Assembly: GCA_021904315.1 (NCBI GenBank)
Contig: CM038909.1
Span: forward strand, 24,833,032-24,897,031
Length of the DNA stretch: 64,000 bases
Direction: 5' to 3'
From: Sphagnum magellanicum
Taxonomy: Eukaryota; Streptophyta; Sphagnopsida; Sphagnales; Sphagnaceae
Shown: piece after piece, positions 25,110 through 36,468 of the stretch
How positions within the stretch are numbered: position 1 is the first letter of the stretch
How the letters are laid out: each line of letters starts with the position of its first letter
Position numbers and translations under genes: made by a program
The notes under the pieces: model-generated
Seen by the model: the letters and a program-made list of their open reading frames with translations, nothing else
Database searches by the model: none
Told to the model about the DNA's origin: nothing

Positions 25110-27110
25110 CTCTTTCAGATATATTGCAAGTCAAGCGTTCTCCATATTGAGTTTTCACAATTTCTCCTACAAGAGGTTAGAAGTGCATCCACACAGTTCA
25201 ATAGAATCAACTTTCTTTAGTTTGTTAGGACCTCCAAAGATAGAGGTAAACTTTCAAGACACTCATAGCTTTTGAATTCTAATGTTCGCAATTTAGGTAA
25301 AGGAGCTTCATTTACCTTTGGAAATTTAACAAGGCTTGAGGACTATATTCGAAGCTTTAGAAGAGCTGGAAAAACACTAGAAAGTGTGAAGGAGTTTGGA
25401 AGATACTTCAAACTTTCGAAGTCCAATAAATCAAATTGTTGAAGTTGAAGTGATATGCCATTTTAGCTGGCATGGTCCTGACATTCGCAAGCTCTAACCG
25501 TAAAATCTTAAGCTTTGTAAGTGCAGATATATTGTAAGGTAGCTTAACCACTCCAGAAATACTAAGTTTTGTTAGAGCAACTAACTTACATATGTCCTCC
25601 AACGAAGCTCTTTTATTTGGATATACATGATCCAAAGATTTTGTTCTTGCAATGTTTGATGGTGTATGTTTAGCCCAAGTGTCAAACCTTTCTGCATCTA
25701 ATATTTGCAATGATGTGAGTTTTACTAGTCTATAAGGAAGATACTTCAACATCCAACAATTAATTACAATCAGGCATTTCAACTTCTATAATTTCCATAC
25801 TATGTCTGGTAAAATCTTTAGATTTATACAATAAGAGATATCAAGACAAACCAAATTCGTAAGATTCCCAACTTCCTCAGATAAACGGTCAAACTTTCCA
25901 TTTCTTAGATCCAGAACCTTCAATTTTGGAAAATTGGCCAATAAATTGTCTAGCACAAACTATATTCAATTTCCACCAAGTAGAAAAAACACCAATTTAG
26001 TTGAATAAAAATTCTTAGGAAGTCTCTCCAATATATTTGTATCCAATGATAGTCTCCATGCTTTAGAAGGTTGCTGCAATGTTGATTTCCACTCTTGGGG
26101 GAAGTCTTCCAAATTTAAACATGTTCAATAAAGATGAAGTTGTTTTACATGGCGTTTGCCACAACCCTTTCTTAGTATATAGAAAACCAAGTTTCTCATC
26201 ACATCATGTACCTTGAACTCTTCAACTGGAACCTTTACATTTGACTCAATGAATGATTGGCTCAACAACTTCTTTGACAACAAAAAGGTATCTGTTCCAA
26301 GATCATCTCCATCATGTGCAGCACCATATACCCTCCCCCATCCAATGCCACAAAATGCGTTCAAAAGAAATCACACAATCTTAAGGAAATTTTGCAAGGT
26401 AAAGAAAATAGTCCTTCAAGTGACCATCATCCTCAGACAAGAAATCATAACCAAGTTTCAAGCGCTCATACAATCCTTTTCAACACTCTTCTCTTGCAGG
26501 TGTGATTCCTTTAGCTTCTTCAATAGTGGCTCCCATTCATATTCAGGTGAGGTCTTTCGGAACATTGTTTCACCTATAACCTTTATAACTAACAAAAGAA
26601 CTTTGCACTCCTCAGACATGGATTGTGCCAAATTCTTCAATTCACATGGAACATGGGATGGTGGTTTGAATGCATGCACACAAAAAAGGCTCCAACTATC
26701 TTGCTTTGAAAGAGGAATCATACACACTTGGCTTATGCGTTGATTTGCTCTTTCCAATAAAAACTGGTTTCTAGTAGTCAACAATGTGACACTTCCATTC
26801 CCCTTGGCTAAATCAAGTGAATCAAACGCCTTGTCTTTCCAAACGTCATCCAAAACCAAGAACACTCTCTTCTGTATGAACCGAATGTGTAAATAATGCT
26901 TATAATCCTCTACGTTTGCATGCAATTCTAGGTTAAAATGCAGTTTTTTACTTAGGGTCCAATATAGAGCCATCATGTCAGGAGTTTGCCCCACAGTGAG
27001 CCAAATGAACTTTGCTTCTTGAAAATGGCCTTGTACCTCTTAGCTCCCGTACAATGTTTGAAGAAGAATAATTTTTTCAACTGCACCCATGCCCCATACT
27101 CCCACATTTC
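25110..27110 (-). pseudogene. NB-ARC-LRR (NLR) disease-resistance-type pseudogene
   Basis: NLRs are intracellular immune receptors with an ATP-binding NB-ARC switch and LRRs. On the minus strand the order is correct: decayed P-loop NVGVWGMGAVEKIILLQ (about 27110-27050, in place of GMGGxGKTTLL), FIWLTVGQ (about 27010), kinase-2 FLVLDDVW (about 26862-26839), SVTLLTTRN, a poor GLPL equivalent (LLLVIKVIG), the MHD-type VHDVMRNLV (about 26211), then LRRs. LRR pieces include LKVLDLRNGKFDRLSEEVGN (about 25920-25860), LPYRLVKLTSLQILD (about 25735), ISALTKLKILRLEL and, near 25270, LRTLEFKSYECLESLPLSLE. Several frameshifts and stops occur. The N-terminal signalling domain is absent, because next to the P-loop the sequence changes to the plus-strand retroelement at about 27129. 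Loss of the P-loop glycine and threonines rules out normal nucleotide binding. Confidence 0.85.
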
Positions 27111-27128
27111 ACTTAGGCTTTCTCCACC

Positions 27129-27780
27129 AAGGGTAATTCTAGTAAGGATGCCAAAAAGAAGGAGCACAATGTTGACAGAAAGGAGGTGCTTCAAGCCCAT
27201 GCTGCTCAAGTTCAAATTCCACGAAATGAGCTCAAATCATTGAAGGCCCAACTTGCTAATCTAAAAGGCAAGTTTTCCCAACTAGCTAGTCATGCCCAAC
27301 CTGTACAAGGTTCAGGATCACGGGAGGGACCTCCTAGGTCGTTCTAGGCCTCTCACATAATGCCACGGTTGGGGAGTATGTTCTTTCTAGTGCACACAAT
27401 TCTAGTCTCACACCAAAATTTGCCACTTCTTTTTGCCCCCCTACTTCGTGGCACAAAAGGCTAGTGTGGCACCCAAAGTTTCTACCATTATGCAAGTAAT
27501 TTAGATTTATGGACTCGCATTTGGTTCAAGTCTTCTTACTAAGGTTAGAAGCATGCCACAATCTTTTTGTCTTTTCAACATGGAAAAAGAATGCACCTTG
27601 TTGGTGAGGGGGGAGGAGACTACTACACCACAAGCTGTTAGACATCAAATTCTAGCATCCCAGGAGTACATGTAAATTAGGAAAGCACATAATTTTTCGT
27701 TAATTAGCTTATGGAATGCCAACTTCAAATGCATGAAGTGGTGTAAAAGCTTGTGAATACACTATTGTTTAGTTCTTAAG
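27129..27780 (+). pseudogene. gag-like region with coiled coil (retroelement N-terminus)
   Basis: In frame from 27129 the translation is lysine-rich and then heptad-like: EVLQAHAAQVQIPRNELKSL, then KAQLANLKGKFSQLASHAQP, followed by GSGSREGPPRS. This is a plausible coiled coil followed by a flexible linker, as in Ty3/Gypsy gag proteins. A stop follows near 27345, and reading then continues in decayed form to the protease segment. No CCHC zinc knuckle is visible. The start is unknown because the 5' end is cut. Confidence 0.45.
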
Positions 27781-27782
27781 AT

Positions 27783-28487
27783 TTGAAGCTAAGCACCAAG
27801 GACATAATTGTAGTATTAAAAGATACCTTGAACACTACATCAGGTCCTCTTCCAATCCCTAATCCACATGCTATAAGGGTCCCATCTAACACCTTGGAGA
27901 GACGCTCAATTGGTTCAATTGTTATAGATGGCGTTTGTAATTTGGTCATTAGTTCTAACATGGTTAAACTAGTAGGCTTTCCTACCTCTAATTTTACATT
28001 CACATATCCAAAAGGAGCTAAAAACACCTCACTTGTGGATTTGTTACTCAGCAAAGGCGTTGTGGATAACCATTGTCTCCACAAAGTCTCTCACTCATTT
28101 TCGAAGGTGATGTTTAGTGAGAAAACTTCCATCGCCATCGAAGTTGCCATTGTCAACAATACTGAGTCAACAATCCAGGTGGGAGGTTATACACCCAGAG
28201 TGGTATTTCTTGATACAAGTGCCCAACCATTGATTCTTAGAATTCACTTTGCTAAGAATATGGGCATGCTCGACTCCAAACTACAGAAATCTATGTGGCA
28301 AATTCCAACAGCTAATGGGAGCATAAAGGAGTTACTTGGGGAGAGCTCGAATTTGATTGCACTTAACTTCAATGAAGGTACAAATCAGGAGCTCTGCCTA
28401 GATGTTAGATGTTTAGTCACCAATGCCATCAGTTATGATGTGTTCTTTGGGCAAGAAAGCCCTATTTCCACCAGGTTTCACAATTGA
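27783..28487 (+). pseudogene. Retropepsin (aspartic protease) region of the Gypsy element
   Basis: The 234-codon frame contains RVVFLDTSAQPLILRIHFAK with the catalytic triad changed from DTG to DTS (codons at about 28212-28220). It then has IALNFNEG and ends with CLVTNAISYDVFFGQES, the YDVLxGxE segment typical of retroelement proteases. The frame ends at 28487, but homologous reading continues in the +1 frame (FTIDN, then HHLGYISLDLHGNHSPMAHH), leading into the methyltransferase. D-T-S rather than D-T-G, plus the frameshift, indicates loss of function. Confidence 0.7.
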
Positions 28488-28869
28488 TAATTAGTTTGAG
28501 CATCCATACTACCGAGTGGATTGGGAGACTGATGGCCACCACTTGGGATACATTTCCCTTGATTTACATGGGAACCATAGTCCTATGGCTCACCATTATA
28601 TGGTCAAGGAAGCACACACTATTTTTTACATCTAACAAGCTAACCACAAGTGGACAGAAAGGAAATGAAGAGGACAGCTTACGCCCAAGCTATTGAAAGC
28701 TTGAGGGTGGTTCCTACTGACATTCAACATGGACTAGAGGTTTTACAGAGGTTCAAAGCAACCCACAAACCTTTTGTCAAAGCTCTATTTACTTTTGAGA
28801 ACATGGAGAGCCATGGCGAACTGATTAAGCTAATATTTTGTTAGCTAATCACCTGGACACCGCCTAAGG

Positions 28870-29850
28870 AGGGGATTATATTACTAGAGTTCTTTGGTGG
28901 TATTGGTACAGGTCTTGAAGCCCTATTACAGTCAGGGATGGTGGTTCAAAGTTATTTTTATGTAGACATAGATCCTATTACAAGGTAAATGGCAACATTT
29001 AGAATGATGGAATTCATAGCTAAATTTTCATAATAGTTTGCAACCACCGCATGGAAGGCGAGTTTCACATTTTTGCCCTATGACATACAATTAATTTAAA
29101 AGAAACATATGGAATTACTTGGCCATGTGGACCTCATCATTTCAAGTTAGGAATGTCAAGGATTTTCAACGACTGGATTTGGAGAATGCTTGAGTGACAC
29201 AAGATCCAGTTTCTTCACAAACATGGTACGATTGATCACCTGGGCTCAATCCATTTCCCTTACGCTTGATTATGCAATTGAGAACACCTTTCTTAGCTTG
29301 ATTAGAGGGAGAAAGTCTAAGAGCATTGCACATTGGTCAAACATTCCCTTAAAAAGTCGCTCTTACTTGATGTGGCACAATGCGGTTCTTATGGGCACTA
29401 GTTGCACAACTAGTGGACCAACCTTGCACCACTTTCAATTCTACAATTGGTTCTAAGATACACCATCAAAGACCCCCACCTATAGTTTCTCACATATTGG
29501 ATGATCAGAGTTCCTGCCAACCAGTTACAAGGCAAGAGAAACTTCCTTGGTTTCCTATGAACATAATAGGAAAACCAAGAGGTGTTTGGCTCACCTTTGT
29601 CTCCTTTTTAAGAGCACACATTTTTTAAGGGAATGGACCAAGCCTGATGTATCGTCATGCTTTAGCCACTTGGGATGAACCAAGCCTAGAAGAAAGAAAA
29701 AAGATTATGGGGTTCCAAATTGGCACTACTAATCACACCAAGGTGACTAGATTAGAGTGTAACATTCTATTAGGGAAATGCATGGACCTGAACTCCCTTA
29801 CATGGTTCTTGGTAACTTGTGTACTCTTTCAAATGTACACAACACCAACA
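28870..29850 (+). pseudogene. Cytosine-C5 DNA methyltransferase domain inside the retroelement
   Basis: C5-MTases methylate cytosine using S-adenosylmethionine and a catalytic Cys. Motif I is LLEFFGGIGTGLEALL (28881-28928, the FxGxG SAM-binding loop). YVDIDP follows at the expected place for the acidic residue of motif II. Motif IV is ECQGFS with the catalytic Cys codon at 29154-29156 (Pro of the usual PC replaced by Glu, and a stop just before). Motif VI is IENT (ENV-type Glu at 29280-29282). In a shifted frame AQCGSYGH...WTNLAP (about 29375) fits the motif VIII region. EPSLEERKKIMGF (about 29677-29715) fits motif IX, and LLGKCMDLNSL (about 29767) fits the motif X region. The order I-IV-VI-VIII-IX-X is canonical, not the permuted order of plant DRM enzymes. 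The GI.TGL...L.SGM and MGF..(G)T..V.RL...LLG patterns most resemble DNMT3. At least five stops and two frameshifts make it non-functional. Confidence 0.75.
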
Positions 29851-30140
29851 TTAATTCAATCAGCATGCAGGTCTAGCGATGCGATTACATGGCATCCTAA
29901 CCAAATACACTTGCCTATTTTCAACACTTTACACTTCACTTTTAATATTGGGGGGGGAGGAGGTACCATGTAAATTCGACTCAAGTTATTTCTGATACAC
30001 CTAGAAATACATCAACTTTTAGAGAAACAATTACAACCTTTTATGAATTTATGTAGTTCGATAGTAGAGAACCCAATACACCAAGTTCTTCAAACACACT
30101 TTCTAACTCCATTCCATGTGTTTCCAACTACCTTTTTGTT

Positions 30141-30930
30141 ATGGGGGACCAGTTCACCAAGAAGGAGAGAGACCAGGTCATAGACTTGCTAATTAAGTAT
30201 GAAAATGTGTTCACATTTTCAATGAAAGACTTAAATAGGTGTAAGACCATGCAATTTTCTATAGACCTTATAGATGAGGCACCCATTTATTGGAAGAGGC
30301 ATAGGTTGAGCAAGCATGAGTGGGAACTGGTAGATGAAAGATGCAAAGAGCTCCATGAGGCCGGTTTCATTCAACCATTAAGGTCTGATTTCATAGCTAT
30401 TACAATAATGCCAGCGAAGAAAGATTCAGCTGGATTATGGATTGAGAAAAGGATGTGTGGGGATTATAGGCCTTTGAACTTAGTTACACTTCAAGACAAG
30501 TACCCCATGTCCATCCCTGAAGAACTATTTGATAACATTGGAAATTCAAACATCTTCACAATTGTGGATCTGAAGCAAGGCTTCAATTAGATTGTGTTCG
30601 CTACAAAGCTTCGCAAAAAAAACGACATTCCATGGAAGCAACAAATTGTGGGAATGGCTTATGATGCCTTTTGGATTAAAGAATGCACATGTTTTCTTTC
30701 AGCAAGTCATGGACCAAGTTCTTGAAGGGGCAGATTTCTTGAAATGTTACATAGATGACATCCTAGTGTAGAACAAAGGATTCCTGCAACACTTGGCTCA
30801 TCTTGAAGAGTTATTCAAAAGGCTCCATGAAGTCAATATGAAGATCCATCCTAAGAAATGTGAGTTTGTTGTCACCTCACTAGTATACCTTGGACATAAA
30901 ATTTTGCCAAATGGTATATGGCTCACTGGG
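30141..30930 (+). pseudogene. Reverse transcriptase of the Gypsy element
   Basis: The 149-codon frame from 30141 carries RT fingers/palm motifs RMCGDYRPLNLVT and NIFTIVDLKQGFN, ending at a TAG (30588-30590) where CAG is expected. After a frameshift in the A-run near 30618 it continues with MMPFGLKNAHVFFQQVMDQV (about 30661) and the catalytic KCYIDDILV (YIDD at 30748-30759), immediately followed by another TAG. HPKKCEFVV and LGHKILPNG follow before a further frameshift near 30918. All RT landmarks are present in order, and YIDD itself is intact. Confidence 0.9.
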
Positions 30931-31059
30931 CCAAAGTAATAGCCATTTTGGAGATGCTTAATCCTACTGATGTTCACATTTTGAGAAGTTTCATCGGACT
31001 ATGTAATTACTACAACATTTATGTCCAAGACTTTATTACTATTACTCATCCTTTTATGC

Positions 31060-31560
31060 ATTGTTAAAGAAGGGTGTTGCTTAGACATGGAATGAAGAGG
31101 GTCAGGAAGCTTTCAGAGTTCTCCATTCTGAGAAGACCTGATTTCAGCAAGGTCTTCATTCTACACACTAGCTAGAATGTTCTTGGTATTGTGTTATTCT
31201 TGGCCAATTTGATGAAAAAGGCAAGGAATATGTTATCGCCTATGCATCCTGAAACAACAAGGCTAAGAGCAACTACTTTTCATACGAGTGTGAGTGTCTT
31301 ATTGTTGTATGGGTCATCATACATTTTAGGCCTTATCCTTATGGCACCAAGTTCACTTTGTATATCGATCACTAGCCTATCAAGTGTTAATGACCAACAA
31401 CAAGCTTATTGGTAAGTTAGTTCATTGGGCGCTTATACTTAGGAGTATGAATTCAAGGTTATTCATCAACCTAGAATTAAACATCAGAATGTGAATACCA
31501 TGTTGTGGAGACCCCTCACTACCTTTGAAAATTTCTCAGAAACCAAACAAGACTTCGACC
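31060..31560 (+). pseudogene. RNase H and connection region of the Gypsy element
   Basis: After the RT, TWNEEGQEAF (about 31087) marks the connection before RNase H. Decayed RNase H segments follow: FILHTS (where the first catalytic Asp is expected), CECLIVVWVIIHFRPYPYGT and KFTLYIDH (about 31350). Then come KLIGKLVHWALIL in one frame and EYEFKVIHQPRIKHQN in another, the usual transition to the integrase linker. Multiple stops and frameshifts occur. Confidence 0.75.
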
Positions 31561-31639
31561 AAATTTGAGCAGTACATGTATTTTATGCATCTAGTTATCT
31601 TGCACTATTATAATGTAACTTGGTTGAGCATCCCATTGT

Positions 31640-32640
31640 GGATATATGGGAGGACTTGGACACTTTGAGTTTTCTTCAATATGAGAAATACCCTCCCCAA
31701 GTTACATCAAATCATCGGGATCGCATACAATAGCGGTTTAAACATTACTCATGGAAAGACAATCACCTTGTTCGATGCTTACCACAAGGTGATAGAGTGG
31801 TTCCTCCACCACATGAACGACCTAGTCTTATTCAAAAGGTACACTTGACGCTTGGATACTTTGCATACTTATAGCCTTCTCACTCTTCATTACCATTGGA
31901 GAGGTATGTATGCTCAAGTCTGAAACGCCATTGCTAGGTGTGAACAATGTGATAGAATGGGAACTTCTTTCTCCTTTCGATAGTTCATGCTTTTTCCACT
32001 CCCTATTCAAGGCATGTTCTATTGCTGGTCATGTGATTTAGCTAGAAAGTTACCACAGACCTCTAGGGGTAATGTGTACATCATGATTATGATTGAGCAT
32101 TTTTCAAAGTGGGTCAAACTTGTTGCACTATTAAACAAATCATCACACAACACCAACCATGCTTTCTTACGATAGGTCCTAAGTAGGTTTAGGGCTTGTG
32201 TTGAGTGCCTTACTAATCAAGGATCATAATCAAAGGAGAATTCCAAGACTTACTTGATCATGCTCTCATTGACCATCGTCGAACTTCAAGGGATCATCCC
32301 CAAGTTGATGGCCTTGTAGAGAGGATGGTTAAAACATGCAAGAAGGGACTTCGGAAGATTTGCCTTATTGGGAACAAAGAGGATTAGGACATGGCCTTAC
32401 CTTACATCGCCATGGGTTACAAGATGTCCAAACATGCCTCTTTGTCTCATTTCATTCCTTACTTTCTACTTTTTGGGAGATATCCCATTCCACCCTCTTC
32501 CATTGTTACTCAAATGGACCAAGTTGTGGACTTAGACTCCTTAGCCACTTAAGCTAGGGTCATCATAGAGAGGGTCGTTCCATTAAGGAGGGTTATGCCC
32601 ATGGCCATGGAGAATTTGTCCATTACACAACGTTAAGACA
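31640..32640 (+). pseudogene. Integrase of the Gypsy element
   Basis: The HHCC zinc module is recognisable at about 31860-31965 (YHWRGMYAQV, then a stop, then NAIARCEQCDRMG). The catalytic core has WSCDLARKLPQTSRGNVYIM with the first Asp (about 32033), then FSKWVKLVALLNKSSHN. CLTNQGS (Asn codon at 32215-32217) stands where the second catalytic Asp of LTDQGS is expected. SRDHPQVDGLVERMVKTCKK contains the Glu (32319-32321) about 35 residues on, matching the DD35E spacing. The Asp-to-Asn change is G-to-A, and together with frameshifts it abolishes activity. Decayed C-terminal integrase sequence runs to about 32640. Confidence 0.85.
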
Positions 32641-32915
32641 CCTTATGGTATGCACACACACAAGGTGGCAGTTACAAACCTAAGGTGAGACAATTTGATG
32701 TTGGTGATTTTGTGTATTTCTAGCAACAACCTAATGATACTTTAGACACTTCTTCCGATCACATTATTTTGAGGATTAAGGCAATCAGGCCTTCAGGTGT
32801 GTTAGAGTTATAAGGAGTTAATGGACGCACAATTTGGGATCACTACTATGCTCCTTGGCACTTGCTGAACTTGGATCCTACCACCATCACGTCAACTTGG
32901 ATTCCTCCACTTGAC

Positions 32916-33068
32916 TATCCATGTCAAATATGTTCAAGGACAGATGATGCTGATTAGATGCTGTTTTGTAATAATTATAATGGTGGATACCATCTATTTT
33001 GCCTCAAGCTGGAGTTCACTCAAGTTCTCACTAGCATTTGGTACTATTCATCATGTTCTCTTGTAGCA
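32916..33068 (+). pseudogene. C-terminal PHD finger of the Gypsy polyprotein
   Basis: PHD fingers bind histone H3 tails through a C4-H-C3 zinc site. The frame reads YPCQICSRTDDAD, stop (TAG 32955-32957), MLFCNNYNGGYHLFCLK, then IWYYSSC, ending at TGA. Matches to the C4HC3 pattern are Cys 1-3, His 5, Cys 6 and Cys 8. Cys 4 and Cys 7 are both Tyr (TAT for TGT), consistent with G-to-A decay. The position after the integrase is where many plant Gypsy elements (chromoviruses) carry a chromodomain, so this element probably had a PHD finger in that targeting role (inference). Confidence 0.7.
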
Positions 33069-33110
33069 CCTTGATTTCTACTCAAACCATGCCACACTTT
33101 TCCCAATTTA

Positions 33111-33820
33111 GGTATAGGGGGGGATACATGAGAATTTCATTTCAACTTCCTCTTATGCATTGTATATATATGTGCCTGCATCTCTTTTTGGTCGATTAGT
33201 TTCTACCTTTGATTAATTTTAGTGTTTTTGTTCAGTAGAGTTTACTATGGATTTACACCTTTATGACACCACATATCATGACACTACGTGTCACGAGAAG
33301 TGCCTAACTTTGCAAGACATTGTTCAACTTATACATTGTACATCTAGGGGTTTTTTTTCTTTTTTCTTGTTTTTCAATTTTGTGATATTGAAAATTTGGC
33401 AAAATTTACACTATACAAAATAAAAAGTTTCTCAATTTTTTCAAAAGAAAAAATATTGTATAAATCTCTCATGAAAATACTTGCAAAATAAATATGGAGA
33501 ATTAGTTGGTCCTTTTTGGGACTTGGAGTGGAGGTAGGCCTATCACTGTCTTTTATTGACTACGTCTGTCTCTCTTTCGAATAGAATAATACTACTCCTG
33601 CAGCACTAACCTAAACGTTGTCAGCTTGGGTCACTAGAGAAAGTCAACATAGATAGAGCGAATGATGATATTACACTCTTCCTCTGCAATATTACCTAGT
33701 CATTACCTATTAAGAAGAGGTGAGGACTTCGAAAATTTCACATAGCCTGTAGTTTCCAATAACTACAAACACAATGAATGATTGCTAGTCACAGTATGAG
33801 ACTTGGAAAAAAGAACAGTA
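33111..33820 (+). repeat. Polypurine tract and probable 3' LTR of the Gypsy element
   Basis: AGGTATAGGGGGGG (33110-33123) ends the internal region like a polypurine tract. A TG at 33129 could open the LTR. The region includes the short palindrome TGACACTACGTGTCA (33279-33293) with an ACGTG core that could serve LTR transcription. The LTR end cannot be set because no second LTR is available and the Mutator-like composite is inserted at 33830. Confidence 0.4.
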
Positions 33821-33829
33821 CTAATTTGG
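33821..33829. repeat. 9-bp target-site duplication, left copy
   Basis: CTAATTTGG here is repeated exactly at 50728-50736, just outside the matching inverted terminus. Nine base pairs is the usual Mutator-like target duplication length. Confidence 0.65.
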
Positions 33830-33900
33830 GGTTGGAGTGAACTAGAAGCCACCAATGCACCAGTTGCGAATGAGCCCATTGAGGCTGTTTTCTGGATGAA
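33830..33900 (+). repeat. Left terminal inverted repeat of unit A
   Basis: Contains GTTGGAGTGAACTAGAAG and the 20-bp core AGCCACCAATGCACCAGTTG, followed by a region (GGCTGTTTTCTGGATGAA) that pairs imperfectly with the inner part of the right terminus. The left terminus of unit B (about 43941-44030) is the same sequence with few differences. Confidence 0.65.
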
Positions 33901-33920
33901 TGAAAATCCGATCTTCCTTG

Positions 33921-33926
<6 letters not shown>

Positions 33927-33959
<33 letters not shown>

Positions 33960-34078
33960 CATCTCTTTTCTACCCCAAAATTTCCCCCCCTCTTACCTAC
34001 CATCTACCTCCCCCCTCCTACCTACCACCTACCTCCCCCCTCTTACCTACCACCTACCAACCCCTCCCCCCCCCTCAC
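33927..34078. repeat. (TA)n run and 25-bp pyrimidine minisatellite, unit A
   Basis: An (AT)n run at about 33927-33956 is followed by a G-free CCTACCTACCACCTACCTCCCCC array of about 3-4 units. The same array in unit B (44087-44240) has about six units of exactly 25 bp. The C-rich strand lacks G, so triplex or i-motif structures are possible. Proline/tyrosine/threonine-rich reading frames across it are a by-product of the repeat. Confidence 0.75.
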
Positions 34079-34229: not shown

Positions 34230-35060
34230 GCACAAGATTTGTTGCGCTGTAGCGTAGCTCCACAAAGCAGCGTTTGCACTTTGTGTTGTAAGAAAAAAAG
34301 AAGAAGAAGGCGATGGCAGCGTTACTGCTGTCGCTTTCTTCTTCTTGTTGTGGAACTACGTTGCAGCGCAGCTCCATGAAGAAGGCGACGACAACTGCTG
34401 TCGCCTTCTTCTTCCAGTTGTGGAGCTGCGTTGCAGCGTAGTTCCCTGAAGAAGGCGACGGCAGCAACGTTGCTGTCGCCTTCTTCTTCTTCTTCGTGTT
34501 GCAACACCTTCTTCATGTCATCGTCGCCTTCTTCATGGAGCTGCGCTGCAATGGCAACGTTGTTGCCATCGCCTTCTTCTTCCTGCTGTGGAGCTAGGCT
34601 GTAGCGCAGCGTAACTCCACGAAGAAGGTGATGGTAGTTGTCGTCACCTTCTTCTGCCTGCTGTGGAGCTGTGTTGTAGCGTAACTCCACGAAGAAGGCA
34701 ACGGTAGCTGCCGTCGCCTTCTTTTGTCTGCTCCGGAGTTGCGTTGCAACGTAGCTCCACGAAGAAGGCGACGGTAGCTACCGTCACCTTCTTCTTCCTA
34801 CTGTGGAGTTGCGTTGCAACGCAGCTCCATGAAGAAGGCGACGATAGTTGCTGTCGCCTTCTTTTGTCTGTTGCGGAGCTGCGTTGCGGCGTAGCCCCAC
34901 GAAAAAGGCGACGGCAACTGCCGTCACCTTCTTCTCTTTGCTACGGAGCTGCGTTGTAGCGTAGCTCCACAAAGAAAGCGACGGCAACTGTCGTCGCCTT
35001 CTTCCTGCTATGGAGTTGTGTTGTAGCGCAGCAGAAGAAGGTGACTCTGTTATGGAGCTA
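34230..35060. repeat. 70-bp palindromic minisatellite in intron 1, unit A
   Basis: A GC-rich array with an exact 70-bp period over successive GAAGAAGG anchors at 34691, 34761, 34831 and 34901 (the decayed copy at 34971 keeps the period) and about ten further-decayed units in total. Each unit has two self-complementary parts: GAAGAAGGCGACGG...CCGTCGCCTTCTTC, and GGAGYTGCGTTGCAACGCAGCTCC-like. Because 70 is not a multiple of three, the long apparent ORFs here (for example 34322-34690 and 34784-35113, minus) rotate frame between units and are not genes. A likely splice donor (CAGGTAAGCATC) lies upstream at about 34169. Confidence 0.85.
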
Positions 35061-36468
35061 CGCTGCACTGTAATAGTGTAGTGAAGCAGGTGATGATAGC
35101 AACATGCCGTCACCTTCTTTTCTGTCTTCTGAAGCTGCGTTATAGAGTAGCTTCATGAAGGAGGTGATGGCAGCTACCGTCACCTTCTTTTTCTTTTGTG
35201 TTTTTTTGTTTTTTTTCTTGTGTAGCATAGCAAATAAGGCTGCAACTTTGTATTGAAGAAGAAGAAGGCGACATTTGCCGCCACCTTCTTTGCTTTGCTG
35301 CAAGGAAATGGCGAATTTGCCTTTTTTTTGTGGTTTTGCTACAAAGAAGGTGACAACATTAATGTCGTCACCTTCCTCTATGGTGGCGATTTTACTTTTT
35401 TTCTTTGTTACTACTTATGTTTTTATTCATTAGAATTAACAATTGGTAATAATTGGTGGTTTTTGGTTTAGGGTTGGAGGTTGTAATAGGTAGGGGAAGA
35501 AGATTAAGGAAAAGTGGTGGTGATGAGTTGGAAGTCAATAGGCAAGATTATGCAACGTCAGATGAGGCAATTCTTTTGCCAAATGTTACTGTGTTAGATG
35601 AGGCGATTCTTCTTCCATATGTTGCTGGAGGAGTTGAGGCAATTGTTGAGCCACATGTTGCTGCATTAGATGTGGCAATTGTTTAGCAAAATATTGCTGC
35701 ATGAGATGCGACAAGTGCTCAACAAAATATTGTTGCATTAGATGCGGGAATTGCGCAACAAATTGTTGTTGCATCAGATGTGGGAGGTGCTCAGCAAAAT
35801 GTTGCTGCATCAGATACAACAACTAATGATTGAAATGTTGTTACATTAGATGAAGTAACTGGTGACCGAAGTGTTATTGCATCAGATCAGGAAATTAGTG
35901 AGCAAAATTGTGCTCTATCATAATTGAAACATAAGGATAGCATTGATATAGATTGTTTTAAAAATTTGTGGACATTAGAAGATAGGACATTAGATTAATT
36001 ACAGATTAAGAAAATTGTACAAGTTTCTTGAAGTTTAATTATATCCGCACTTTGCATCATTTATTGGAAGGTGCGAGAATTTTTTTGTCAAAATTTTTTT
36101 ACTGCAATATCTTAGAATAGTTCATGCTTATAGGAGTAGTATGTGATTTTGTGATTTGATGTTTTGTAATACCTTCATTCTGTTTTTTGAACTTTCATTT
36201 TTCGAATTTAGGTCCGGAACTGGAAACTAAGCAAGCTTCTCAACCACTTGCACTTTTTTGTCCACCTAATTTAGCTCGGAAGGATAAGGAATGGACAAAA
36301 GTTGGGTCCAAATGGAAGTGCAAAGTTGGCAATTGCAATGTCGCATATTGTGCGAAATGGTTATTGACCAAGCATTTGAAAGAGGTGCATGGTTTGGTGG
36401 TAGAAAAGTCCAAACTTGGGAGGCCTTCAATTGCTATAGGAGGTCTTCAACATCAAAACCATGCCAAA

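What the first reader, a model, noticed from the sequence alone, without database searches (positions are those of the whole stretch)
28870..33068. Ty3/Gypsy element encoding both a cytosine DNA methyltransferase and a C-terminal PHD finger
Seen: in one plus-strand polyprotein, C5-MTase motifs I, IV, VI, a probable VIII, IX and X lie between the protease and the RT, and a C4HC3-type PHD finger follows the integrase. Known: cytosine methyltransferases have been captured by retrotransposons in some algae and dinoflagellates, and chromoviruses carry a C-terminal chromodomain. Inference: a retroelement that carries its own methyl-writer and a histone-reading module could mark or choose its own chromatin. 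I do not know of this exact MTase-plus-PHD architecture being described.
Basis: partly seen in the sequence, partly recalled or inferred. Interest (0 to 1): 0.88.

Follow-up and report, generated by a model that had tools for sequence, protein, structure and literature searches.

The report
Moss retrotransposon with methyltransferase and PHD
A family of jumping genes, in a genome that is almost certainly that of a peat moss, carries in one reading frame the enzymes that copy and insert it plus a domain predicted to methylate DNA and a finger predicted to read histones, which would let new copies mark and choose their own chromatin.

Summary
The window carries a decayed, 5'-truncated Ty3/Gypsy copy (27107-33296, +). 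In the same genome (almost certainly Sphagnum magellanicum) an unbroken 2370-aa frame reads gag, protease, DNMT3-type cytosine methyltransferase, RT, RNase H, integrase, PHD finger. 54 of 56 match rows run from methyltransferase into RT. Catalytic Cys, Glu and Arg are present in 49 of 49 family members with letters there. Methyltransferase and PHD are about as constrained as the integrase. It is not a nested insertion.

DNMT3-bearing Gypsy elements with DIRS-like repeats are known from the alga Klebsormidium (PMC5890265). Not found in my ten searches: land-plant members, the PHD finger, a second layout with the methyltransferase between RNase H and integrase, and 4-bp target duplications (16 of 19 copies) with two 3' forms at the split repeats.

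Likely working, inferred: the methyltransferase marks new cDNA and the PHD guides the integrase to H3 unmodified at K4. No activity was tested; a motif-IV Pro to Glu change in 30 of 49 members leaves catalysis open. New variant of a known kind.

The parts
27107..33296 (+). Decayed Ty3/Gypsy-DNMT3-PHD retrotransposon copy, 5' truncated inside gag, short-form 3' end
   Evidence: blastn to genomic copy C8a: 27107-27175, 27182-33071 (85.8% over 5960 columns), 33072-33123, 33124-33296
28173..28340 (+). aspartyl protease remnant
   Evidence: PF13975 0.018, below cut-off; colinear tblastn to P0001 and P0003; 28.1 bits against cut-off 28.2 in the intact frame, over cut-off in P0004
28845..29833 (+). 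DNMT3-type C5 cytosine methyltransferase: motifs I-VI in the frame of 28845, VIII in the frame of 29297, IX-X in the frame of 29485
   Evidence: PF00145 4.6e-05; tblastn P0003/P0005; end coordinate estimated from the P0005 alignment; 985 of 987 bases aligned to the intact copy
30144..31372 (+). reverse transcriptase and RNase H (frameshifted)
   Evidence: RVT_1 8.5e-07 on 30574-30768; tblastn P0005, P0055
31641..32800 (+). integrase (zinc-binding and core); end approximate
   Evidence: tblastn P0051, P0012; Integrase_H2C2 and rve in the intact frame
32922..33056 (+). C4HC3 PHD finger at the integrase C-terminus (one internal stop at 32955)
   Evidence: PF00628 5.3e-07, over cut-off; 153 of 153 bases aligned to the intact copy
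33124..33296 (+). terminal repeat B (B1 only; no A2B2)
   Evidence: blastn 79.7% to B of copy C8a

Best explanation
This is a dead copy of a Ty3/Gypsy retrotransposon family whose single Gag-Pol frame holds a DNMT3-type cytosine methyltransferase between protease and reverse transcriptase and a PHD finger after the integrase; the methyltransferase is predicted to methylate the element's new cDNA, and the PHD would likely tether the integrase to nucleosomes with unmodified H3K4, so that copies arrive already marked in chromatin that tolerates them. Shown: the architecture in an intact copy, many copies in the host genome, MTase-bearing relatives in a liverwort and the alga Closterium, conserved catalytic residues, constraint on both extra domains, integrase-type insertion (TGTC...GACA ends, 4-bp target duplications) with split direct repeats A1-internal-B1-A2-B2, and methylation-like decay of the window copy. 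Inferred: catalytic activity, its target (cDNA, insertion neighbourhood or both), the histone mark read, and replication through a circular or tandem form whose B-GC-A junction (GACA-GC-TGTC) the integrase cuts, which would explain why full (B1A2B2) and short (B1) 3' ends are equally common (9 and 9 of 19).
For: Intact 2370-aa frame with all domains in order. 54 of 56 genome match rows join MTase to RT-RH, 49 of them over residues 1-820; the other two rows are halves of one copy (capped list). 46 of 49 RT-IN-PHD copies have MTase sequence upstream: 31 by list, 12 of 12 fetched (one with only a C-terminal piece), 3 more by overlap rows; 3 not examined. 26 of 68 proteins have an MTase match and a full PHD motif in one prediction. 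DNMT3 identity: PDB sequence hits are DNMT3A/3B/3C first, HaeIII and HhaI behind; the 50 listed Foldseek matches are DNMT3A/3B/3C entries. Cys, Glu, Arg 49 of 49 with letters, 2 of 51 gapped. pN/pS over nine copies: MTase 0.16, PHD 0.14, IN 0.18, RT-RH 0.34, protease 0.38, gag 0.53. PHD nearest to CHD4, WSTF, KDM5D, KMT2C/D, ATXR5, EHD3, Lid, BAZ2B, KDM5A/B PHDs, several of which I recall as H3K4me0 readers. Exact 4-bp duplications in 16 of 19 copies; 9 full, 9 short, 1 self-inserted form. Window copy: C-to-T/G-to-A at 36.6% of CG, 37.8% of CHG, 13.5% of CHH sites relative to one intact copy.
Against: No activity or binding was measured. Motif IV has Glu in place of the usual Pro in 30 of 49 members, including the window's Sphagnum family. 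The one Gypsy relative assayed in print, the Klebsormidium DNMT, gave no methylation in yeast, which the authors call inconclusive (PMC5890265 section 10). Among named hosts the MTase-PHD pair is shown in Sphagnum only: the Calypogeia and Closterium proteins lack the 3' part, and the K. nitens gene model has no Pfam PHD. Nine of 12 RT rows on the window's side of the tree show no MTase in the predicted protein; these proteins start close to the RT, so loss, absence or truncation cannot be told apart. If protease cuts the polyprotein as in other Gypsy elements, MTase and PHD end on different products. The CG/CHG decay could be due to host enzymes alone. Not every PHD relative reads H3K4me0, as far as I recall. 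The AlphaFold model is modest: mean pLDDT 55, residues 81-180 at 78-89, but the motif-IV loop (185-200) below 50. Two of nine fetched copies have a damaged PHD and three have a stop in the MTase.
Confidence: 0.55

Rival explanations
1. The MTase is a structural or RNA/cDNA-binding passenger without methylation activity, kept because it helps polyprotein folding or reverse transcription; the Pro to Glu change in motif IV reflects lost catalysis.
For: Glu replaces Pro in 30 of 49 members; no activity seen for the Klebsormidium DNMT in yeast, called inconclusive by its authors.
Against: Catalytic Cys, Glu and Arg are kept in 49 of 49 with letters, Pro is kept in 19 of 49 and in both layouts, and MTase constraint equals that of the integrase.
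Confidence: 0.2
2. Self-restraint: the MTase methylates the element's own copies so that they are silenced early, lowering harm to the host and letting the family persist; the PHD merely steers insertions away from promoters.
For: Window copy decayed mostly by C-to-T at CG and CHG; a host benefit by slower retrotransposition is also raised in PMC5890265.
Against: Host methylation explains the same decay; a very recent copy exists (A1/A2 0 of 310, B1/B2 0 of 178 differences in copy C8a), so silencing is incomplete.
Confidence: 0.2
3. The MTase and PHD are unrelated nested insertions or assembly artefacts beside an ordinary Gypsy element.
For: The window copy is frameshifted and full of stops, which alone would allow this.
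Against: Unbroken frames with both domains in the same genome and in other sources; 54 of 56 genome rows keep MTase joined to RT; RT and MTase trees part the two layouts alike.
Confidence: 0.01

Closest known systems
KnitGypsy-Dnmt3 of Klebsormidium nitens (PMC5890265)
   Same: Gypsy pol with an in-frame DNMT3-type MTase in a streptophyte; repeats described in a figure legend as like those of DIRS elements; purifying selection on the MTase (section 9). A K. nitens integrase (P0065) falls inside the window-type clade in the IN tree.
   Different: The paper's main text has no PHD (0 occurrences; figures and supplements not seen); it reports charophytes, not land plants. The K. nitens gene model P0065 ends without a Pfam PHD; whether it is linked to a DNMT3 was not tested.
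SymbioDIRS-Dnmt3 of Symbiodinium (PMC5890265)
   Same: DNMT3 inside a retrotransposon Pol; activity on CG shown there in yeast.
   Different: DIRS, not Gypsy; the paper treats the two as independent acquisitions.
Chromoviruses (Ty3/Gypsy with integrase C-terminal chromodomain)
   Same: A histone-reading module at the integrase C-terminus.
   Different: PHD finger instead of chromodomain; no chromodomain hit in the intact frame at E 0.01.
PAT/Ngaro elements with split direct repeats (passages of PMC4157794)
   Same: A1-B1-A2-B2 repeat organisation.
   Different: They use a tyrosine recombinase; this family has a DDE integrase and makes 4-bp target duplications.
CR1-like non-LTR elements with PHD domains (Kapitonov and Jurka 2003, title seen in a reference list)
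   Same: A PHD finger in a retrotransposon protein.
   Different: Non-LTR element; no integrase and no MTase that I know of (recalled).
DNMT3A/3B
   Same: MTase fold and sequence class; DNMT3 itself pairs the MTase with an H3K4me0-reading ADD module (recalled).

Membership tests
Ty3/Gypsy retrotransposon | PR-RT-RH-IN order with DDE integrase | tested here: met
   Intact frame, (protease 28.1 bits, just under cut-off 28.2); PDB hits of the RT-RH part to the Ty3 polyprotein
Ty3/Gypsy retrotransposon | Two plain long terminal repeats | tested here: not met
   Split direct repeats A1...B1A2B2 in 9, A1...B1 in 9, self-inserted form in 1 of 19 copies
Gypsy-Dnmt3 elements (KnitGypsy type) | DNMT3-class MTase inside a Gypsy Pol frame | tested here: met
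Gypsy-Dnmt3 elements (KnitGypsy type) | Common descent with the K. nitens element | tested here: inconclusive
   IN tree places P0065 in the window-type clade; bootstrap not settled; P0065 not shown to carry the MTase
C5 cytosine methyltransferase | Motifs I, IV (Cys), VI (Glu), VIII (Arg) | tested here: met
   49 of 49 with letters for Cys, Glu and first Arg, second Arg 48 of 49; motif I Gly 43 of 43
C5 cytosine methyltransferase | Pro-Cys in motif IV | tested here: not met
   Glu-Cys in the window's Sphagnum family and 30 of 49 members; Pro in 19
C5 cytosine methyltransferase | Catalytic activity | not testable with these tools
   none
PHD finger | C4HC3 over the Pfam cut-off | tested here: met
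   42.8 bits against cut-off 24 in the intact frame; window 30 bits
PHD finger | Histone binding | not testable with these tools
   none
DIRS/PAT/Ngaro | Tyrosine recombinase, no target duplication | tested here: not met
   rve integrase; 4-bp duplications in 16 of 19
Chromovirus | C-terminal chromodomain | tested here: not met
   No chromo hit at E 0.01, PHD instead

The most novel reading that the evidence does not exclude
A streptophyte retrotransposon lineage has rebuilt the logic of DNMT3 (an H3K4me0 reader working with a de novo methyltransferase) inside a Gypsy polyprotein, so that each copy reads its landing chromatin and writes its own methylation; and it spreads through split-direct-repeat intermediates whose GACA-GC-TGTC junctions are cut by a DDE integrase, a replication route between the LTR and DIRS types.
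Probability: 0.3. Interest if true: 0.9.

Novelty: new variant of a known kind. Interest (0 to 1): 0.74.

Why it matters
It shows a mobile element carrying both a likely epigenetic writer and a likely reader, each under selection, in a land plant, where one article said transposon-encoded DNA methylases are not present (land plants 'such as tracheophytes'; PMC6338049, passages). The host is a moss with a chromosome-scale genome and many copies of different ages, so whether an element can set its own methylation, and whether a PHD finger steers a Gypsy integrase, become directly testable from methylomes, histone maps and insertion sites.

Tried and rejected
Nested insertion or artefact: rejected by the unbroken frame and the conserved linkage. 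DNMT1, CMT or bacterial-type MTase: DNMT3 entries come first in sequence and fold searches; HhaI and HaeIII follow. Ordinary LTRs: the repeat finder saw no such pair in 20000-42000, and fetched copies show split repeats. Related DNA in viral contigs: nothing confirmed with P0051, P0003 or alignment A2. A leader open frame in copies C8a and C20 looked like an extra gene, but is repetitive low-complexity sequence. Of 19 copies, C7 and C2:21.1 lack an exact target duplication and C10:16.2 has inserted into itself; all three are kept in the count. One copy (C15a) ends AACA, not GACA. Trees: IN tree bootstrap not settled, P0041 and P0068 are long branches, midpoint roots only. In the pN/pS counts codons with stops or gaps were dropped, no multiple-hit correction was made and pairs are not independent; PHD nucleotide divergence is oddly high.
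Full report
What is in the window. Three-frame translation of 27400-34000 shows protease, MTase, RT, integrase and PHD signatures on the plus strand, broken by stops and frameshifts. Pfam gives PHD 5.3e-07 and DNA_methylase 4.6e-05 over their cut-offs and RVT_1 8.5e-07 just below its own. tblastn with relatives is colinear over 27126-33059, and blastn with a genomic copy extends the element to 27107-33296. The 5' part (terminal repeat A, leader, most of gag) is missing; blastn found no match to it in the window. Upstream lie remnants of an NB-ARC/LRR gene on the minus strand.

Host. The own-genome search reports 439 Mb in 31 contigs with the window at C3:24833032-24897031. Contig C15 is 18169471 bases, the same length as the contig of P0006, a Sphagnum magellanicum protein of this family. 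I therefore take the host as S. magellanicum, a moss (lineage). This is inferred from one contig length.

Relatives. The MTase piece finds 7 proteins among 1724 candidates, including Sphagnum P0006 and the liverwort Calypogeia fissa P0004. The MTase of P0003 finds 46 among 2871, including two from Closterium. The integrase-PHD piece finds 19 among 370, including Klebsormidium nitens P0065 and Calypogeia P0066. Together 68 distinct proteins; 26 of them hold an MTase match (family profile) and a complete PHD motif (pattern) in one predicted protein: 25 with the MTase next to the integrase, between RNase H and integrase where RT is present (layout B), and one, P0055, with the window order (layout A; only the C-terminal part of its MTase is in the protein, and Pfam does not call it). 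Most are from sources without a host name. Among named hosts the pair is shown only in Sphagnum: the Calypogeia and Closterium proteins do not reach the PHD, and P0065 has no Pfam PHD.

The intact frame. Nine genome copies were fetched for long open frames (from the list). One has a single open frame of 2379 codons between stops. From its first Met (2370 aa) Pfam gives: protease 719-815 (28.1 bits, cut-off 28.2), DNA_methylase 1016-1103, RVT_1 1478-1632, RNase H 1695-1824, integrase zinc domain 1943-1999, rve 2018-2111, PHD 2321-2365, all but the protease over cut-off. In all nine the Cys of motif IV, the EN of motif VI and motif VIII are unchanged; three of the nine have one stop elsewhere in the MTase; the PHD is undamaged in seven (one stop in C7, one metal-binding Cys changed in C15b). 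The own-genome search with P0005 gives 56 match rows (55 of 5281 candidates scored, so a lower bound); 54 run from MTase into RT-RNase H, 49 over residues 1-820, and the other two are halves of one copy. From the RT-IN-PHD side, 31 of 49 copies have a listed MTase match 0.5-2.5 kb upstream; of the other 18, 12 were fetched and all 12 hold MTase sequence, one only a C-terminal piece; three more overlap full MTase-RT rows; three were not examined. A second Sphagnum family, about 50% identical in RT-IN and with canonical PCQ, has the same protease-MTase-RT-IN-PHD order, with stops and shifts in the two copies read.

What the MTase is. The MTase parts of P0005, P0011 and profile A1 hit DNMT3A/3B/3C first in the PDB; HaeIII (2.2e-05) and HhaI follow for P0011 and HhaI (8.3e-06, against 6.1e-08 for DNMT3A) for A1. 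The AlphaFold model of P0002 is modest (mean pLDDT 55.4; residues 81-180 at 78-89; the motif-IV loop 185-200 below 50). All 50 listed Foldseek matches are DNMT3A/3B/3C entries, TM by target length 0.39-0.75. Across 51 aligned domains, 49 have letters at the catalytic positions: Cys 49, Glu 49, first Arg 49, second Arg 48. The residue before Cys is Glu in 30 and Pro in 19, in both layouts. What the Glu does is unexplained.

What the PHD is. The PHD of P0051 hits CHD4, WSTF, KDM5D, KMT2C/D, ATXR5, EHD3, Lid, BAZ2B and KDM5A/B (108 sequences matched, 60 shown). I recall several of these as readers of H3 unmodified at K4, others not; that assignment and its transfer to this PHD are inference.

Selection. 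Summed over all pairs of nine copies, pN/pS is MTase 0.16, PHD 0.14, IN 0.18, RT-RH 0.34, protease 0.38, gag 0.53; the window copy against the intact one gives 0.44 for MTase and 0.36 for PHD. Pairs are not independent and stops were dropped, so these are rough, but both extra domains look as constrained as the integrase.

Ends. Where a standard A1 is present (18 of 19) it starts TGTC; 18 of 19 last B repeats end GACA and one (C15a) AACA. In 9 of 19 the 3' end is B1-A2-B2 (A about 310 bp, B about 178 bp), in 9 it is B1 alone, and one copy (C10:16.2) carries inverted end pieces as if it had inserted into itself. Exact 4-bp duplications flank 16 of 19 (chance roughly 1 in 256 each). B1 and A2 are separated by GC in 7 of 9 full copies and AC in one; the script left one unresolved, whose letters begin with GC. 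Copy C8a has 0 of 310 and 0 of 178 differences between its repeats, so insertion was recent. KnitGypsy-Dnmt3 was described in a figure legend as having DIRS-like repeats with Gypsy domains, so the odd ends seem shared; the target duplications and the two 3' forms I have not seen reported.

Two layouts. In the RT tree (32 rows) layout B is one side of a branch with 100/98 support; in the MTase tree (45 rows) a 100/99 branch parts 10 layout-A and 2 unassigned rows from 31 B and 2 unassigned; in the IN tree (43 rows, bootstrap not settled, one layout-A row) the A-side rows with P0065 of K. nitens form a 100/99 group. So the domains seem to have travelled together since the layouts split, with one move of the MTase or two captures; this cannot tell which, as no outgroup DNMT3 was included. 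Against this, 9 of the 12 A-side RT rows show no MTase in the predicted protein; they start close to the RT, so absence or truncation is open.

Decay. Against the intact copy C17, the window copy has 510 C-to-T/G-to-A, 190 the other way and 117 transversions; the rates are 82 of 224 at CG, 139 of 368 at CHG, 289 of 2133 at CHH. This fits long methylation at CG and CHG, by whichever enzyme.

Literature. Ten full-text searches gave one primary paper on Gypsy DNMT3, PMC5890265 (abstract, sections 9-11 and passages read; figures and supplements not seen); PMC12344493 (passages) refers back to it; PMC6338049 (passages) says such transposons are not present in land plants such as tracheophytes. In what I saw, none names a PHD in such an element; most listed papers were seen as listings only. 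Most subscription papers and all bioRxiv preprints are outside the library.

Mechanism. Shown: architecture, copy number, constraint, integrase-type insertion with split repeats, past methylation-like decay. Inferred: MTase acts on the cDNA as it is made; PHD tethers the integrase; the B-A junction is the integrase substrate. The chain as a whole I put at 0.55.

Noticed in passing
window 25408-26994 (-): NB-ARC (1.3e-23) and a weak LRR match (below cut-off) of an immune-receptor-like gene just upstream of the truncated element.
   Followed up: partly
window 34293-35193: Tandem family with a 70-bp period, at least seven copies, in a GC-richer stretch downstream of the element.
   Followed up: no
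MTase motif IV, family-wide: Glu replaces the near-universal Pro before the catalytic Cys in 30 of 49 members, in both layouts, while Cys never varies. No explanation yet.
   Followed up: partly
L001, L003, L004, L064, L065: A second, distant Sphagnum Gypsy family with MTase (canonical PCQ read in L001) and a PHD in the same order.
   Followed up: partly
G000 copy C10:16.2 (L040, L041): Both ends carry inverted pieces of A or B, as in self-insertion of a copy into its own terminal repeat.
   Followed up: no
PHD codons of nine copies: Nucleotide identity to the intact copy falls to 88-97% in the PHD while the protein stays nearly fixed, more than in MTase or RT.
   Followed up: no
P0043, P0045: Two deep relatives have Glu-Met instead of Glu-Asn in motif VI and sit on a long branch.
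   Followed up: no
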